Positions 21,604 to 32,153 of a DNA stretch of 64,000 bases are shown in pieces. The position numbers were made by a program, and so were the translations under genes. The first letter of the stretch is position 1. Each line of letters begins with the position of its first letter. The stretch comes from Acytostelium subglobosum LB1 (taxonomy: Eukaryota; Evosea; Eumycetozoa; Acytosteliales; Acytosteliaceae): contig NW_012236526.1 of the NCBI RefSeq assembly GCF_000787575.1, positions 372,001 through 436,000 on the forward strand. Direction: 5' to 3'. The notes below the pieces were generated by a model that was given only the letters and a program-made list of their open reading frames with translations, had not been told where the DNA came from and made no database searches.

Positions 21604-22124
21604 AGAGTTCATCCACTTAATTTGATTAATTGATTGATTGACTTGGCTCATCGGGTAGGGTCCAGTGTCTCTCGGCTTTCATTATGACATCAGTAATAGA
21701 CAATAGAATAAGAACTAATTAGTTTATAGATGGTGACATCCAAATTTTGATTGAATTAGTGGAGTTGATGAGCCACCACCACACTCACAAGGATTAGATT
21801 CTCAAAATGATCAACGATGTCATGGAAGACCATCAAAGGTTTGGGGTGAATGCGAGATTCAAGCTCAGTGAAATTTACATTCGAATTCTCTCTCGTTTGG
21901 GACATCACACTTCTAAAGGACACCTTTTACCTTGATATCAATCAAACCTCATTCTCTCTATCAATCAACTGTAACATTTATATATATATCACTTTGTTAT
22001 TATCTCATTAACTCAATCACATCACATCACATTACATTATATCCTTTCATTCAAATACTATCATTCGTTCAATCAATCAATCAATCAAACATAATTTTAT
22101 ACATAGAGATAGATAGAACGGAGA
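21604..22124. other. spacer between the M16 and CBM20-USP genes
   Basis: 521 bp. The 3' side of the protease gene is GC-mixed and the 5' side of the next gene has CAATCAATCAAT runs (22070-22088). No gene is recognised. Confidence 0.4.
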
Positions 22125-24395
22125 ATGAAGAAGAGAATAATAGTTAGATTCTATGTACAGAAGAAGGTTGAATATGGTCAATATCTAAAGATAACGGGGT
22201 CTGTACCTGGTCTTGGTTATTGGTCAGTGGACAATGGAATAAGGATGCAGTGGACAGAGGGTGATTGGTGGATTGCAGAGTATCAATGTGAGGGTGCATT
22301 GTACTCACAACCAAAGAATCAATTCCGTTTGGATCCTGTATTTGGTCTATGTCTAGAAGAGACCAACAACACAGACCTGTTATCAAGTGCCTCGTCCACT
22401 CCATCTAGCGCCTCCTCGTCCACGTCATCATTCCTTCTCAACAGCACACAGTCACTGTCGCCCAAGCTCAAGGGCGTCTCGCCACAGTTCATCGACCTCG
22501 AGTACAAGTACGTACTGTTTGAGAACTACACCACGGCTTGGGAGTCTGAGCGCAATCACAAGGTCAGCTTCATGGTGTGGTCCGACCCATCAGTCGCCAA
22601 GGACGTTGAGGACATCCTCATAGAGATACGTGATGAATGGAATGGAGGCAACGGCGTCTGCCCCACGCTGGACTTCCAATCGAACCAGCCCATAGTCCTG
22701 GACCGCTCGGCAGCTCATTACTCATCGCCGAGCACAATGGGACTCGGCAGCTATTCCCCGACCTCGTCCAGCTCGTCCATATACTCGAGCTGCTCGTCAT
22801 TGCAGCTGACTGACAGCGAGAAGCAGTACTGCTTCCTGCATCCGATGGACCCGCACCCTGTACCCCGCTACCCGGCCCAGATCTGTACGTTCATCGTGGT
22901 GGGCGAGGGCAACACCGACTCGCACAGCGTGCTCCTGGTCAGCCACTTCTTTGGCTCGGAGTTCCAGAACTCCATCCAGATGATACCAATCGTGCAGCTG
23001 GGCGTACCCTACACGCTCTGGGTGGGCCAGCTGTACGCGCCACAGCCAATCAAGTTTGAGTACAAGTACGTCGTGGTCAGCAATAACAATCGTGGAATGT
23101 TCTGGGAGAAGGGCACGAGATACTTCTCATCGTCGACACAAGGTCCTCGACTCCTAATCAACAATGATGGCCCATTGCGTGTGTCTGATGCCAGTCCATC
23201 ATGGATAATGACTGGTCTCGTTGGACTTGTACAGACTGACTTCAACTGTGCCCTAGTATCCGTTGTACAGATGTTATATCATATATCACCTTTAAAGAAT
23301 GTAAGTGATGATTACTTTGATCATGGATGTACAGTCACTGACATACGACCACAACAGGTATTATTGAACCTAAGGGGAAAGATTGGATTCCCATATACTC
23401 AATGTCTGGCCAATATATTCACATCGATGGAGATGGGCTCTCAAACTACGGAGCTCCATCCACTACAGACAATGATTGGAAACTGCTCAGATGCAGCCGA
23501 AATACTAAACATAATCCTGGTTTCTCTAATCGAGGAGGTATCAAGGGTATGTATCATCATTCAATCACTCAATCAATCGCTCGATCACTCACTCAATCAA
23601 TATACTTCTAGATCTCACAAATATCGAGTCATGACAATATAGTGATTGATCATTTGTTTGAAGGAGAACTTACACAGACATCAATATTTGTGGAGCAGAC
23701 TACATTGGATGGACAACAACAACAACAACAACAACAAGGAGAGATAACAGCAGTCAAGACACATAAGGAGAAGTTTGTCAATATTATACTTCCAGTCCGT
23801 GGATACACATCACTAGAGTCATCCTTCCAATCATACAAACATAATATCGAGCATTACGAATCACCAAACACAGTATGCGAGACAACAATCACAATGGACA
23901 TAATACCAGATATATTCATAATTCAACTTGATCGAACATATTATCAATCATCATCATCATCGAACTCATCCTCGGATAACCAATCACAGCAACAACAACA
24001 ACAACTTGTTAAACTAGTTGACATGTTCTCATTTCCAAAGAAGTTCTATCCGACGGATAACAATGCACAGTATAATCTAAAGGCTATTATATGTCACACT
24101 GGCTCTGTGGATGCGATCAACAGTGGACACTTCTTTATATACGTTCGTCGTGGCAAGCAATGGTACAAATGTGATGGTGCCACAATCCTAAAGGTTAGCC
24201 AGCGAGAGGCAATCAATGACAGCTATGGTGGTGGTGCCAATGATTCATATGCATGTAAGTTATAACTTCATACGTTTAGATTGATTGAGCGATTGATCCA
24301 ATCATACTGATCCTACACAACTAACTCATTCAATCAATCAACCAATATCAGATATACTTGTTTATGAAAAGTTGGTCACACTGGAAAATAGATAA
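22125..24395 (+). CDS. two CBM20 modules fused to a ubiquitin-specific protease
   Basis: Exons 22125-23546, 23612-24254 and 24352-24395 encode 702 residues. The first CBM20 (about 5-150) has the starch/glycogen-binding pattern: GQYLKITGSVPGLGYW, GDWWIAEYQ, EYKYV, and an aromatic/NRK-like WESERNHKV. A second, looser CBM20 (about 245-340) ends FEYKYVVVSNNNRGMFWEKG. A USP domain follows: GLVQTDFNCALVSVVQ carries the catalytic Cys (375), although the usual oxyanion Asn five residues before it is Gln. The His box GHFFIYVRRGKQWYKCDG keeps His 647 and Asp 662 of the triad, and the final exon supplies the standard SYAYILVYEK. It may remove ubiquitin from proteins on glycogen; that is inference. A poly-Gln run sits near residues 500-508. 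I know no well-studied protein with this layout. Confidence 0.82.
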
Positions 24396-24652: not shown

Positions 24653-26156
24653 ATGTATCTAAACTTATCTATACTAAATATAACTTTATTATTCTTATTA
24701 ATATTAGTTGTTAGATCTGACAAGATCAATGAGTTCCTCGACAGTGACTCTATAACTGTCGGTTATGGTTGTGTTGAGACCACTCTAACTCCTCTACCAA
24801 ACTCAATTATTAAGTCGAAGGACGCTAGTATCGTGATGAACTTTAATCAAAGACAAATGTAAGTATTCATCAATCCACTCTATCATATCACTCATCTGAT
24901 GAATGCTAACATTATTTCTATCAATCATACTCAACAATATATAGGAAGATAGCCGATTATTCAATTGACACAACTGACAATGAAGTATTACTCAGTTACA
25001 CCAAGACCATCATTGGTGAATATCCCAATGTTGTAAGTAGAAATAATGAATATGGCTATCATAAATAAGAAACTAACATTACTTAAATAATAGTACTTCA
25101 TTGATCTGTACACCAACCGGACCATTGCTCCCATTGGATTGGTTGTGGTTGATGATCAAACCATCAAGTTCACCTTCCCCACTCTCCCAATCTCTGACAA
25201 GTTGGTGTATGGATTCAAGGACATCTTTAACTGGAATGGTCATTTTATTGGTGTAAGTTACTCCTTCATTCATTCAACTAATCCCTATCAATCAATAATA
25301 CTAACATTTACCCATCCAGCCTCAATACGCGGGTGTCTACTCTACGACTGAGCAACCTCCTGCCCCAAACACCCTTCCATCGAGGTCCAAACTTAGTCTT
25401 TGCCCACTAACCAATCCTACCTGGTTTGGAGGTGATACCTCAGTCCAACCATCGGTGTCCCCAATGGCCAAGTTGGTTGCCAATCCCTGCAACTCAACCA
25501 TCTCCATCTGTAAGCCAAGTGATACTTTCTACTATGAGCTGGAGCTTGATCTGCGCCTCTCAAAAGGTAATCTAACAATTCAATTCTACCAGTTCACATT
25601 CGCTGGTCAGAAGTATAATGTCAACCTTCCTGTATGTATCTACATTATCCTCGATATCTTTCACTATTACCTATGACTGACTCTTTAATATATTTTGTGA
25701 TATATATAGATTTTGTTGGAGTCATTGGATTCTATTGTTGAGTATCAAATGAACATAGATGACCAGTCTTACCAGTTCATTGGAGAGGGTACGGCTGACC
25801 TTTTCCAACCATATGAGCCTCCAAGTGATAAGATGGTTGGGATTGTCAGTCCAAGTACATTCAAATCATACATCAGGTCCTTGTATGATAAGGAATTCCT
25901 CAGTGTCACTTTTGGAAATGGATCAGTTGTCCCTGTATGTTTCCAATCTCCCTCAAGTTCCTAATGAGTTTGTTGTAAATGTCACCATCCTAACAATGAT
26001 CACTTCAATTATATTATAGTTTAACTTTGATTGGATTGGATATTTGGCCAAACCTTCCCAAGAGACATTCATCTTCAACTCAAAGGATGTAGCAAGTATG
26101 TTATTCTCTCTAACTGGATATTATATATCAACCGATCAAATCTAATTTGTCTTTGA

Positions 26157-26187
<31 letters not shown>

Positions 26188-27703
26188 CATTCAATATAGG
26201 AATCATTATCTTGGTGAAGGAGGATGGAAATATGTTCTATATGTCCTCTTCCCAGACTAAGTTCTGTCCAACTGGTTCCCCTCGTAACTCTGGTTATGTT
26301 GGAAGTACTCATTACTTGTTCCGTAATGGACCAAAAATGAACAGATACCAACTTAACTCCATGGTACCTAAAATCACAAGGACTTTCAGAATCACTTTGT
26401 TTGGAAAGTCTTATCTATTCAATACTACTCATCTCAACCATGATGATGACCAGGTCAAAATTAGTTTCCATTTCAATGATGCCTCATATGACTGGAGTAA
26501 GTAATAACATTCCAATCGATTCTCAATATACTAACCCAAACTCTATTCTCAAACAAAGTATTGCTTGGCTATTCTATGTTGTACCCAGAGAGTGGTACAA
26601 TCAAAGGTGGCTTGTTCATTCCAGACACTCAATTTGGATCTAACCTCGATCAAATTGGTGTTACACCGGACAAACTCTTTAATCAACCCAACTTCTGTTC
26701 CCAAGGGGAAGGAAGTGGTTTGAGGAACAATCTCAACTATTTTGTTGCCAGAGGTGATTCTTTCATTCCAAATTACATGCCATTCTGGTCCCAGTGTGAT
26801 GGTACCTTGTCTGATCGCAGTCACCGTACCAAGTTGTCCGAGGGCAAGTTAACTTGTGATCTAGCAAGCGAAATCGGCAGGTCCATGATCCAATTCAACC
26901 AAGGCTCCATCCCTATTCTACAACCATTTGTCAGCCAGCCGACAATCAACCGTACCATCAACTCAAACTACATCGATCCCTGCGAAGGAGAGTTTACAGT
27001 TGATGTCTGCAACTCAGGCCAGGTTGAAGGACTTTTCTTCATGGATTTCTCTTGCAACAATGAGATGGGAGAGGTTCTTATTGAACTGATCAACAGGTTC
27101 CAGATTGTGCTCCCAGGTCAATGCCTTCCATTCTCCACCAGAATTGTCTACAAGGAGTATCCAGCCAAACCTCTGCAGTGTCGAGTGGATATGTCCATTA
27201 ACAAACAACTGCTCTGGATCGATGAGGGAATGAAATCGACCGCCAACTTCATCATTCCCATGTACCCATCTTGCACAATGGTCAACCCTTGTTTGGAGGT
27301 CATCTGCAAGCCCAAGCTGGATATTATCGAATACCATCCATCAGAGTTTATGAAGGTGGGCCACTTCCTATATACGTCCAACTTTGATGTGAAGATTAAG
27401 AACTCTGGAGATGCAGGTGGATACTTCAAGTCCACTCTCAATTGCTCCTCTCCGATCATCAAGGATTCGAACTTTGAACATGAGAATGGACTCTATGAAC
27501 AGGTCACCTACATTGACTCCATGAGCAATGATACTCAAAGATTCCAACTATTGGTCGAGCCTTCTCCAACTCCTAATACATTCTTGGAATGCAAGGTGAT
27601 GACAACCATTATGAACCCTAGCAGATGTTGGTCGATTTCTGATACCGACACACACAACAACACCATCCTCACTGCCATTCCATACGACCCTCTAGTCGAG
27701 TGA
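24653..27703 (+). CDS. HAP2/GCS1-like secreted protein (gamete fusogen family)
   Basis: Eight exons (24653-24858, 24945-25032, 25094-25252, 25320-25631, 25710-25934, 26020-26095, 26200-26496, 26559-27703) join to 835 residues. A signal peptide (about 1-22) opens the protein. Near residues 485-520 is LDQIGVTPDKLFNQPNFCS then GLRNNLNYF, which keeps order and spacing of the HAP2/GCS1 signature (IGV..F..QPNFCSxP..SCLHNQL). Around 596-650 NSGQVEGLFFMDFSC and the QCLPFSTRIVYKEYPAK stretch match HAP2 domain III. HAP2 is a class II-type gamete fusion protein. Two of its usual features are absent: the second Cys of the signature is replaced (SGLRNN) and I find no C-terminal membrane segment, so this form may be soluble. 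D. discoideum is reported to have HAP2-type gamete proteins. Family membership is well supported; fusion activity is not shown. Confidence 0.78.
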
Positions 27704-27776: not shown

Positions 27777-27782
27777 AATAAA
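27777..27782 (+). terminator. AATAAA signal (HAP2-like gene)
   Basis: AATAAA lies 74 bp beyond the stop, only about 40 bp from the end of the convergent gene. This supports the HAP2-like reading frame ending where called. Confidence 0.55.
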
Positions 27783-27820: not shown

Positions 27821-30800
27821 TCATACTTGGACGTCCACCATGATTCGATTGCACATGTCAATGGTCCTCACGCTTCCAACCTCATAAGCATGATGACGAA
27901 CTAAGTTGAGAAGTTTGTTGATACAATTTTGATCGATACCTGCTCGAGTGTAGCAGCCACCACAACCATCTCCATCTCCTTCAAACATATAACTGATCAA
28001 ATGATGATGGTTATTGTTCAATGCCACTTGGATGCTTGGCATTGTTGGGATATGTCTCTGGAGCTGGGCAGGCGTGACACATCTTTGATGTATCAAACGG
28101 AGATTGCTCAGGTTGCCATCCCTGCAGGCTTGGTTGGTGATGAGTTGTAATGAGTTGGACTTGTAGTTGTCCACACTGAGGTAACCTTTGTCTAAAAGAT
28201 ATGCCAATACTGATGGGTTTAAGATCGCTTTCAAACTGAACAATGATTCTATCCTTTCATTTGGACTCCAGATACCATTATTGATGGCCAGTGTGAACAA
28301 ATGGTCAACTGATTGGATAGGTTCACCATCGCCATTCTTAATACAACTTTTGGAAAAGTGGTCGATCGCCTTCCTGATAGCCTCTCTTGTGATAACAAGG
28401 TCCAATGGGAATGTTGTGTAGTGATCGATTACCAATTGGATCAATGATATAGGTCTTTTCAACACATAGGTCAATAGTGAATTGTTTGGTTTGAAGTTGA
28501 TACCAAACTTGAGGACCGTATCAATTGTCACCAAGCTGCCAGGTTCTCCAATGCGATCGATTAGTTTTATCATATCCCCCTGTAACATGGTGCCCGGCTC
28601 TGGCTTCATCTTCCTCGCCATGTTAAGATTGTCCATCCCCAACGCTTTTGAGAATGCAGCCTTACGGTTAAAGGGTGGGAACTTCGAGGCATTACTCTCA
28701 ATGTATTCAATGAAGTCATTGTTACCAGTCGCTATCGCATCGGTCAGACAACCAGTATATTGGCTACAATCGATGTTTGGATGTTCCAACAAACATTTGA
28801 TCAAATTGATTGAATTGATTGAGTGATCTATAAATTCGATCTTGTCTGATTGATTGGCATACTTATCTGCCAGATCTGACTCCAATTCACTCATTAGGAA
28901 GTTGAACACCTCCAGATGTCCATTGACCAATGACGTTGATACGGCATTCAATACATGCTTCGAAGATTGACTGTTGTGATCTACAATGAGTTGATGCATT
29001 CTCTTCACAATGACCAAGTGACCACCTGCTACTGCAAAATCAAACAGTAGAGTGAGGAGTTGATAATGACCATCATCGGGATGTGGTGATGATGAAAGTA
29101 ACATGTTAAACATATCCAAACTTCCACTGTTGATAATTCGTTCGAATAGAATAATCTTATTGATCTCCACTACATCTCGAAATGGATGAACTTGATGTCT
29201 GTTGAGAATGTATCTAAAGACTGATGTGACGTTGTAATCAATGACGATGGTCAACATGTATGAGAGCAACTCATTTGACATGAACATATAATCATCCAAG
29301 AGTGTGATCATCTCCAATGCCCATGGTTTGGTCAGCCAGGTGTCACGGAAATTGTCCAATATATGAATATCATTAATCATCTCGGGATCTATAACACTCG
29401 TCTCAATGAGTCTTTGAAGGAATGCTGGATGATTGATTGATGGCACTAGTTCATCTGAGAAGTAGCAGGGTTTGTCAGTCAACCAGTTGATCATGAGGAA
29501 TTGCTCAAGTATCTGCTCCCAGTGTGGATGTGCACATGATGACAAGTCTCCAAGATTCTGTATGTTATTGCGAGCACGTGTGCTCATGTTGGGATTGGCA
29601 ATGAGTGCATTCAAAGCACGTGTGTCACCTTGAGAGAATGCTTCAGTCAACAATGATGTATTGAATGGATACGTCGTTGGGATAGATTGGTATGCATTGA
29701 GGAACCATTCCGTAGCACCATATTTGATGTAGTCTCTAAGGTTGTGATTGTCCAACAATCTTGAACCCTTGATCACTTTGTCTTGTATGGAGATGTGAAT
29801 ATATCCAATGTGTTCCATGATCAATGGTCCAAGCTTCCTATTACCAAACACCTTGTGGACCAATTCCTCCATCCAACTTGAACATGCCAATCTATGTGGT
29901 TGCGCCGCCAAAGGTATGAGACTGGACAAGTCCCTACGTTAGTTGTATGTCTTTGTATGAATGAATGATGAATGATTGTTATCACTTACTCTCTGAGATG
30001 ATCATCACCATTATCATCACTTTGGCTGAGTGGTTGGATGTGTTTGATGCATAGTTTGATCAAGTGTGTTGCTCCGACATGATAGGCTTTTTGGAGGATA
30101 GTATGGAAAGCGCGCAAACGATGTGACTTGGACAGATTGTTGAATATATCTGAGTTGAAATGGTATTCCATTGAATGATGAGCATTCTCTTTGACCATAT
30201 TCTTCAAAGTTCCAAGACTTAATCCAAATGTAGATACCAAGTCCTGGACCTGTGGTCCAAACTGTCTCTGAAGTGCGATGATATAATCAGGCCGGTCATT
30301 GGTCAAAGCAACTTCGACTATTATCTCGAGATCAGATTGAATCTCTTCAAATGTGAACAAACTGATGATGTACTCAAACACCTCTGGAGAGGCATTATGT
30401 GCCGCCCATATACAGCATCTTGTGTCCTGCCTGACTTTGATTGAGTGCTCCAACATCATCTTGACCTCATCAATGGTTGCTATCTGAATGAAACTTGATC
30501 CCTGCTGCTGGTCCAGATCAAGGCTCATCTTCAAGAGCTCCAAAGTCTCGCCACATCTACGCTTCATGGCTGATGTCAATGAATGTCCACTGATCTCATA
30601 GGGCACATTGAACTTGCGATGTAGCGCCTTCATCACAGCAGCCGAGTAGCCCGCAGCCACTGCCATTGAGCGCGAGGCATAGTCTTGTACAGAGTGTACG
30701 TCCTGGATCTTGCAGTTTTCAATGAACATGCAGACAATGTCGGCGGTGATGTTGGTATCTTCCACCGGTGCCCACACCATGTTGAGCAGTGACTCGCGAT

Positions 30801-32001
30801 CAAATACGAGTGGAGGTGATCGTGGTCTAGAGATAAGTGTGGCCATTGATGCAGACATTCTGTTGCAAAGATTTTCATTCAAACTCTTGATGTGAGTGAT
30901 GAGTAGTTCGGCACTGACCAGGTCATCAGTGCGGATAGCTGCCAAATAGGAGACGTGAATCTTGGATCCAGTCTCATCCAAACTCTCAACTATTTGATCC
31001 TCAGTGTTCATATGGAGTGTGCCATTGCCGACGTGATGTGTGTGTAGGTACAAGACAAAGTCTTCCTTGCCGTATGACACTGCCTCTTCAACAAAGTCTT
31101 GGATGAATATCTCCTTAAGGTATTCGGCACCAAAGGATGTTTGACTGAACACAAGGAAAGCGTCAATGCTTCCATACTTGGCGCAATATACAAGGAAGCT
31201 TTTGAACTTGTTGGTGGCGACACCGGTGTCAGGGAAGTTGGCAAAGATGTACTGGATATTTTCGATTAGGTTGCGCTTGATTGAGTGCTTTAGGACTTGT
31301 TCCCAAATGTGGCGATACACAAATAAGCAGCCAAACTCCTCGTGAAGTACCTTGAGCACGCCTACTTCGATGTTACGTCTCTTGAACTTGAAGTACTCGA
31401 GGCGATTCACGGCATTCTCGATCGACTTTTGGATGTACACGTCTTGGTCCTCGTTGGGATCGTTGTCTGAGGGCACGAGATCATATTGCTCCTGCGGTAT
31501 GCAGCCTCTTGTCTTTAGATGTTGGAGCAGGGTTCGGACAAAGTGTTGGTCGCCATGGGTGATTGCAATGGGCAGGCAGGAAACAAAGTCGACACTCATC
31601 GATGAGAAGCAGGATGTGGCGGCGATGTATGATTGTAGTATGTCAACATTGCCATGTCGGCATGCATCTTCAAGTCTGAACACCTTTTGATCAATGATCA
31701 TATTGGGATGTTTGAGTAAAAGATTGAATACTAGTATGTTGTTGCGTAGTGCAGCTTGTCGTAACAATGTAGTATTGATTGGATAGTTGGAGGCTACTTC
31801 ATTGAATGCCTTGATGAACATCTCTGTGGCATTGTACTTTAGCATCAACATCAGGTCGCCACTCTGATGCAACACCCTGCCCTTGATCGTTGTTAACTCT
31901 TTATACATCTTTTGATGGATGTTACTGACATGGTCAAGTATACGTCTCCACAGAACATGGTTGTGGAACACGTCATAATGGATACTTCGAGTGTTATCCA
32001 T
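27821..32001 (-). CDS. dictyostelid ankyrin-like protein with two tandem modules
   Basis: Two coding exons (32001-29990 and 29933-27821) join through a 56 bp GTAAGT..TAG intron to 1,374 residues. The second exon has no ATG at its natural start, and its frame continues the first (HLRE|DLSSLIP). Each half begins with the same N-terminal module: first half VFHNHVLWRRILDHVSNIHQ then KYNATEMFIKAFNE; second half VFGNRKLGPLIMEHIGYIHI then KYGATEWFLNAYQS, each ending in a (K/A)HPNM or ANPNM unit. Weak ankyrin-type helical repeats follow (residues of the NGHLEVFNFL type). Large families like this are known in Dictyostelids, with unknown role. The repeat of the whole module within one spliced gene is a likely tandem duplication. 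An alternative is two genes, the second starting at MEELVHKV. Confidence 0.72.
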
Positions 32002-32153
32002 GGATGATCACTCACTGTTATGCTTATCTGTACTGATATTAATATAATTACTTAGTTATTGAATGAATGAAATGAATGAGGTTGATCAAAACTTGTAAAT
32101 GTAGTGATCATCGATTATTTATACAAGGTGGATGGTAGTTGTTGCTAATTTAA

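What the first reader, a model, noticed from the sequence alone, without database searches (positions are those of the whole stretch)
24653..27703. HAP2/GCS1-type gamete fusogen relative without an obvious membrane anchor
Joining eight exons brings together the HAP2 signature (IGV, then QPNFCS, then LRNNL) and a domain III-like NSGQVEGLF..FDCS-style block. HAP2 is the gamete fusion protein of protists and plants. This copy lacks a C-terminal hydrophobic segment, and one Cys of the signature is replaced. A soluble member might be a decoy, a recognition partner or a diverged paralogue.
Basis: partly seen in the sequence, partly recalled or inferred. Interest (0 to 1): 0.75.

Follow-up and report, generated by a model that had tools for sequence, protein, structure and literature searches.

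The report
Anchorless relative of an amoeba fusion protein
A social amoeba carries a seemingly intact gene for a secreted-looking cousin of the proteins that fuse its mating cells; it lacks the part that would hold it in the membrane, so it probably does not fuse cells itself but may act on those that do.

Summary
The window is Acytostelium subglobosum LB1. Eight exons (24653-27703) join into an 835-residue protein with an N-terminal signal sequence, a HAP2-like signature, a domain-III-like block and no later hydrophobic segment. Two of the three signature cysteines are missing, not one.

It is not a canonical HAP2. PF10699 scores 20.9 bits (cut-off 27.4) and the cysteine-rich fusion-loop region is absent. 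The canonical HAP2 lies elsewhere in the genome (295 bits). Homology to HAP2 over signature and domain III still exceeds chance (0 of 300 shuffles).

One close paralogue was found, on contig C39: 53% identity, all seven intron positions shared. It continues for about 770 residues to a transmembrane helix. The window copy stops at a domain boundary, with a poly(A)-type hexamer just downstream and no remnant of the missing half in the window. dN/dS is about 0.2-0.3.

The pair resembles dictyostelid HgrB, a second HAP2-like protein that D. discoideum needs for gamete fusion; no HgrB sequence was available for comparison. Best reading: a TM-less, probably secreted HgrB-like paralogue that binds or modulates the fusion machinery. 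A decoy role is untested.

The parts
24653..27703 (+). whole gene: 8 exons 24653-24858, 24945-25032, 25094-25252, 25320-25631, 25710-25934, 26020-26095, 26200-26496, 26559-27703; 835 aa
   Evidence: open frame over all exons, all seven introns GT..AG; same seven intron positions and phases in the C39 paralogue; public protein P0001 agrees over its 774 aa
24653..24718 (+). signal sequence, residues 1-22 (possible cleavage after VRS; read by eye)
   Evidence: 19-residue hydropathy mean 2.38 at residue 2, the maximum of the protein; the C39 copy has a hydrophobic N-terminus in the homologous exon. Cleavage not tested.
24719..26635 (+). N-terminal part, residues 23-480 (introns included): no confident HAP2 similarity; only 5 Cys
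   Evidence: hhalign alignment to HAP2 begins at residue 481 (lowering the threshold adds only zero-confidence columns); Cys 40, 179, 208, 215, 378
26636..26743 (+). HAP2-like signature, residues 481-516, with C501 kept and the two flanking Cys replaced (L484, G508)
   Evidence: hhalign to HAP2; aligned with Arabidopsis HAP2 5ow3_C by a profile search, E 0.95; Pfam match covers residues 479-667
26981..27274 (+). domain-III-like Ig domain R1, residues 596-693
27293..27700 (+). second Ig-like repeat R2, residues 700-835; the protein ends at its boundary
   Evidence: profile match to repeat R3 of the C39 paralogue, probability 86.8, 0 of 40 shuffles
27701..27703 (+). stop codon TGA, where the C39 paralogue reads on for about 770 residues
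27777..27782 (+). AATAAA poly(A)-signal-like hexamer
27821..29938 (-). convergent open frame; leaves only 117 bases after the stop, no room for a long 3' exon
   Evidence: no Pfam family at E <= 1

Best explanation
The gene encodes a short, transmembrane-less paralogue of a dictyostelid HgrB-like protein. Shown: it is a duplicate of the C39 gene, introns included, that lacks that gene's remaining repeat-like segments, TM helix and tail; it keeps an open frame, 18 of its 19 Cys are shared, and the pair's sequence is constrained. Shown with moderate strength: its signature and first Ig domain are homologous to HAP2. Inferred: the signal sequence sends it out of the cell; because it has neither anchor nor a recognisable fusion-loop region it is not a fusogen on its own; it most likely acts on gamete surfaces by binding the membrane-anchored HAP2/HgrB-like proteins or their partner, tuning fusion as ligand, co-factor or competitor. 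The sign of the effect (help or block) is open.
For: 8-exon model and signal sequence. Paralogue P0002, 393 of 779 columns identical to P0001; seven intron positions and phases shared, last exon 1145 vs 3452 nt. NG86 dN 0.355, dS 1.43; YN00 0.351/1.88; LWL85 0.339/1.17 over 827 codons; R2, at the truncated end, is about as constrained (0.38/1.57) as the rest. 18 of the window's 19 Cys are conserved in C39. No TM or GPI-type tail. No remnant of the C39 C-terminal 767 aa elsewhere in the window: best tblastn E 0.12, lying inside the gene's own repeats. Homology to HAP2: Pfam E 1.5e-4, hhalign P 2.4e-4 with 0 of 300 shuffles, pairwise blastp to the HAP2 fragment on C34 E 8.9e-5 (window) and 1.4e-6 (C39), R1 fold. 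HgrB parallel: motif at 496-556 in HgrB, 283-331 in HgrA (Fig. 1 legend), 484 onward here, 493 onward in C39, about 294 onward in the genome's own HAP2. HgrB is needed for gamete fusion in D. discoideum types I and II. Soluble EFF-1 monomer and soluble domain III block EFF-1 fusion (review passages).
Against: No expression, secretion or function data. No HgrB sequence could be compared: of 3 protein searches, one search returned only the two A. subglobosum proteins and only P0002. dS is near saturation, so dN/dS averages over both lineages and does not exclude recent loss of function. AlphaFold gave no usable model of the whole protein (pLDDT 30). Pfam score below cut-off and no PF10699 match for the C39 copy. 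The intact HAP2 itself gives only blastp E 0.049 with the window protein.
Confidence: 0.5

Rival explanations
1. Canonical HAP2/GCS1 fusogen whose TM exon was missed.
For: Signature and domain-III homology.
Against: A canonical HAP2 followed by a TM exon lies at C55:813083. The paralogue's TM lies in the same exon as the signature, without an intron, and the window copy ends in a stop there. Only 117 bases separate the stop from a convergent frame, with AATAAA starting 74 bases after the stop. HAP2's domain II tip has seven invariant Cys (PMC6089408, passages); this protein has five in its first 485 residues.
Confidence: 0.04
2. Membrane-held non-fusogenic subunit: the N-terminal hydrophobic stretch is an uncleaved signal-anchor, or the protein is held by the C39/HgrB-like partner, and it serves as a co-receptor subunit.
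For: One hydrophobic N-terminal stretch; D. discoideum may use a multi-component fusogen complex (authors' suggestion).
Against: VRS before D23 fits the usual -3/-1 cleavage rule (recalled, by eye); no cleavage predictor was run.
Confidence: 0.22
3. A decaying duplicate: it lost its C-terminal half and is on the way to a pseudogene, without function.
For: Loss of the TM half; two interrupted HAP2 fragments elsewhere in the genome show that such copies do break down.
Against: 835 intact codons and seven intact introns at dS above 1; dN/dS 0.19-0.29; 18 of 19 Cys shared; clean end at a domain boundary; AATAAA.
Confidence: 0.17
4. Assembly or strain artefact: the true gene continues into the missing half.
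For: A single draft assembly decides where the frame stops.
Against: The 767-aa half is not found downstream in the window. P0001 in public databases ends at the same residue, though it may rest on the same assembly.
Confidence: 0.05

Closest known systems
HgrB of Dictyostelium discoideum (DDB_G0281923), second HAP2-GCS1 homologue
   Same: N-terminal signal sequence; HAP2 similarity centred on the motif region; motif near residue 500; restricted to dictyostelids according to the paper (PMC4910948, whole text)
   Different: HgrB has a probable TM near the C-terminus, as does the C39 paralogue; the window protein has none. Sequence not available here, so orthology is not shown.
HAP2/GCS1 (HgrA orthologue; in this genome C55:813083)
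   Same: signature core QPNFC; domain-III-like Ig fold; signal sequence
   Different: PF10699 below cut-off; two signature Cys lost; no Cys-rich domain II tip; no TM; part before the motif about 190 residues longer and not confidently alignable
MatD and MatT of the D. discoideum mating-type loci
   Same: weak similarity to the HAP2 motif, said to be with conserved cysteines (one passage of PMC4910948)
   Different: not compared; sequences not available. Whether the window is a mating-type locus was not tested by sequence.
[quoted passage not shown]
   Same: as an idea only: a fusogen relative that restrains fusion (abstract starts in the listing; its truncated, TM-less form is recalled)
   Different: a retroviral envelope relative, recalled to have an unrelated fold; acts through the receptor ASCT2 (listing); no homology claimed or tested

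Membership tests
HAP2/GCS1 (PF10699) | score at or over the curated cut-off (27.4 bits) | tested here: not met
   20.9 bits, 21.3 for P0001; own-genome HAP2 295 bits
HAP2/GCS1 (PF10699) | three-Cys signature C..IG..QPNFC..GSC | tested here: not met
   1 of 3 Cys kept (C501); L484 and G508 instead; core QPNFC present
HAP2/GCS1 (PF10699) | domain II tip with seven invariant Cys around the fusion loops | tested here: not met
   five Cys in residues 1-485; invariant set from PMC6089408 passages
HAP2/GCS1 (PF10699) | domain III Ig-like fold after the signature | tested here: met
HAP2/GCS1 (PF10699) | C-terminal transmembrane helix | tested here: not met
HAP2/GCS1 (PF10699) | needed for gamete fusion | not testable with these tools
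   needs an experiment
HgrB (dictyostelid) | HAP2 similarity centred on the motif, motif near residue 496-556 | tested here: met
   alignment starts at residue 481, motif from 484; HgrB numbers from the Fig. 1 legend
HgrB (dictyostelid) | signal peptide and C-terminal TM | tested here: not met
   signal sequence present, TM absent in the window protein; C39 paralogue has both
HgrB (dictyostelid) | direct sequence orthology with D. discoideum HgrB | not testable with these tools
   HgrB was returned by none of 3 protein searches, which need shared 5-residue words
HgrB (dictyostelid) | found only in dictyostelids | tested here: inconclusive
   only two A. subglobosum proteins found; the searches are word- and length-limited

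The most novel reading that the evidence does not exclude
The gene is a naturally evolved soluble competitor of class II gamete fusion: a secreted HgrB-like ectodomain with two domain-III-like Ig domains in tandem that binds the anchored HAP2/HgrB-like machinery on gametes and limits fusion (self-fusion or multiple fusion), a cellular counterpart of the laboratory finding that soluble EFF-1 monomer or domain III blocks fusion.
Probability: 0.17. Interest if true: 0.75.

Novelty: new variant of a known kind. Interest (0 to 1): 0.45.

Why it matters
D. discoideum needs a second HAP2-like protein, HgrB, besides HAP2 itself; in 2016 its discoverers called the reason elusive. A species with two related HgrB-like genes, one anchored and one without an anchor, is a natural experiment on what the second protein does. 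If the short form proves to regulate fusion, it would be an endogenous soluble regulator of a gamete fusogen. The listings (15 of 193 papers shown; 6 of 6; no paper) show no title on such a HAP2 relative; I did not open most of these papers, and papers not held were not searched.

Tried and rejected
Canonical HAP2: rejected by Cys pattern, Pfam cut-off and missing TM. Hidden 3' TM exon: unlikely, because the paralogue has its TM in the same exon and only 117 bases separate the stop from a convergent frame. Remnant of the lost half: none in the window. Mating-type locus: not tested by sequence; of the 40 frames of 180 aa or more, four were scanned with Pfam (a CBM20 and ubiquitin-hydrolase gene, an ankyrin-like frame, one without match), the others were only read by eye.

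Led nowhere: whole-protein AlphaFold (pLDDT 30), not used; phmmer against PDB (no match at E <= 10) and profile against PDB (HAP2 at E 0.95, behind an envelope polyprotein at 0.78); NCBIfam; three protein searches for other dictyostelid members; HAP2 alignment of residues 1-480. Foldseek's two best hits (E <= 0.001) are chains of the mouse sperm axoneme central apparatus, not fusogens; HAP2 domain 3 comes at rank 17, E 0.0095. Of 21 segment pairs compared, 6 beat 40 of 40 shuffles (R1-HAP2 D3, R1-R3, R2-HAP2 D3, R2-R3, R2-R4, HAP2 D3-R4), only R2-R3 with a high probability; R1-R2 was reached by 1 of 40, and the other 14, among them all 11 with R5 or R6, by 2 or more. The PF10699 genome search at E <= 10 also rings in 1 of 14 control genomes, below the cut-off. 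Papers: Bloomfield 2010 (PMC3648785) is not held; term look-ups in PMC4334915 (genome paper: no occurrence of macrocyst, sexual, HAP2, GCS1, hetero- or homothallic in the main text), PMC5580921, PMC13046832, PMC5055082 and PMC9279424 (passages) gave nothing on this gene, so I do not know how LB1 mates.

Full report
What is there. The window is from Acytostelium subglobosum LB1 (public protein SAMD00019534_040450, P0001, identical over its 774 residues) and is G000:C50:372001-436000. P0001 starts at an internal methionine and so misses the first 61 residues with the hydrophobic N-terminus. That the longer start is right is supported by the paralogue on contig C39, whose first exon also codes a hydrophobic N-terminus followed by a conserved stretch.

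The paralogue. One close relative was found in the genome and in the protein database: P0002 (SAMD00019534_084750), identical to P0001 in 393 of 779 aligned columns. Rebuilt with its first exon, its own C-terminal frame and a stretch that the public model removes as an intron, it has 1612 residues; its seven intron positions and phases are those of the window gene (exon lengths 227/88/159/312/231/76/294 against 206/88/159/312/225/76/297, the differences being whole codons that fall on alignment gaps). The last exon differs: 3452 nt in C39, 1145 nt in the window. In C39 it goes on through four more segments that I cut by eye as repeats (R3 and R4 have profile support, R5 and R6 do not), a TM helix (from residue 1452, hydropathy 2.89) and a Cys-rich tail. 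The window copy stops after its second repeat.

The end is real as far as sequence can tell. tblastn of the missing 767 residues against the whole window finds only the gene's own repeats and noise (best E 0.12), AATAAA lies at 27777, and a convergent frame ends 117 bases away. After residue 60 no 19-residue stretch exceeds a hydropathy mean of 1.19.

Constraint. Over 827 aligned codons the two copies are 53% identical; NG86 dN 0.355 and dS 1.43, YN00 0.351 and 1.88, LWL85 0.339 and 1.17. In ten segments NG86 dN/dS is 0.50 or less (highest in exon 1); R1 is the most conserved (65% identity), and R2, next to the lost half, is not relaxed. 18 of the window's 19 Cys are conserved in C39. dS is near saturation, so these are averages over both lineages.

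What is missing from HAP2. Of the signature's three Cys only C501 remains; L484 and G508 stand where HAP2 has Cys, and C39 lacks the same two, which suggests (inference) that the two pair with each other in HAP2 and were lost together before the duplication. HAP2's domain II tip has seven invariant Cys with a Glu-Arg salt bridge (PMC6089408, passages seen); the window protein has five Cys in its first 485 residues. No fusion loop can be pointed to.

Other HAP2 genes in the genome. A canonical HAP2 lies at C55:813083 (295 bits; TM exon downstream). There are two partial, interrupted copies: C34:152876 (signature region, frame broken upstream, no domain III match; 42-44% identity) and C55:727857 (signal sequence and domain III only; 38-41% identity). 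So the window gene is not this species' HAP2.

Closest described system. Okamoto et al. 2016 (PMC4910948; whole text) found two HAP2-like proteins in D. discoideum gametes: HgrA, the HAP2 orthologue, and HgrB, similar only in the motif, limited to dictyostelids, with signal peptide and probable C-terminal TM. Both are needed for mating of types I and II, not of type III. The motif is at 283-331 in HgrA and 496-556 in HgrB; here it begins at about 294 in the canonical HAP2, 484 in the window protein and 493 in C39. By position and by motif-centred similarity the pair is HgrB-like, C39 being the full form. I could not compare sequences: the three protein searches found only the A. subglobosum pair or P0002 alone.

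How it probably works. Without anchor and without recognisable fusion loops it should not be able to pull two membranes together by the class II mechanism. With a signal sequence, eleven N-x-S/T patterns (two lie in the signal sequence) and conserved Cys it looks like a secreted or surface-bound glycoprotein. The parsimonious role is binding to the same partners as the anchored form. Soluble EFF-1 monomer and soluble domain III inhibit EFF-1 fusion (PMC8784728, passages), so competition is a concrete possibility; co-factor is the equal alternative. The same passage says soluble EFF-1 trimers stimulate fusion. The steps from secretion onward are inference.

Verdict. A real gene, correctly spotted, with an interpretation one step too narrow: an anchorless HgrB-like paralogue and not a HAP2 fusogen. 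New variant of a known kind; interest moderate until expression or a knock-out is known.

Noticed in passing
L017 4735-5299 (G000:C55:727.7-728.3 kb): A signal sequence followed by HAP2 domain III only (38-41% identity to the genome's own HAP2), in two frames around a single N base, with a frame downstream (from about 5360) that resembles the HAP2 TM exon (MYEQCR...): possibly a membrane-anchored domain-III-only HAP2.
   Followed up: partly
L016 4344-5087 minus (G000:C34:152.9-153.7 kb): A HAP2 fragment covering the signature region, its frame broken upstream, with no domain III match; 42-44% identity to the canonical copy.
   Followed up: partly
L019 2201-2512 and 1480-1706 (C39 paralogue): The public model P0002 lacks the signal-sequence exon and removes as an intron a stretch (SLCPLT..W.GG..SV.PSVS) that is conserved as coding in the window copy; likely annotation errors.
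   Followed up: yes
L019 3432-6883: The C39 protein carries repeat-like segments after the domain-III-like one; R2-R3 are clearly related (probability 86.8); R1, R2 and R4 each beat 40 of 40 shuffles against HAP2 domain III, though with probabilities of only 3-11%; R5 and R6 are not supported. Perhaps a tandem array of domain-III-like domains.
   Followed up: partly
window 22113-24265 +: Upstream frames carry a starch-binding CBM20 domain (E 1.9e-16) and a ubiquitin carboxyl-terminal hydrolase domain (E 1.8e-4 on the same frame, 1.2e-14 on the next).
   Followed up: no
window 27821-29938 - and 29986-32007 -: Two neighbouring long frames, one ankyrin-like (E 1e-5, under cut-off) and one without Pfam match; similar-looking long frames flank the C34 HAP2 fragment too (by eye).
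   Followed up: no
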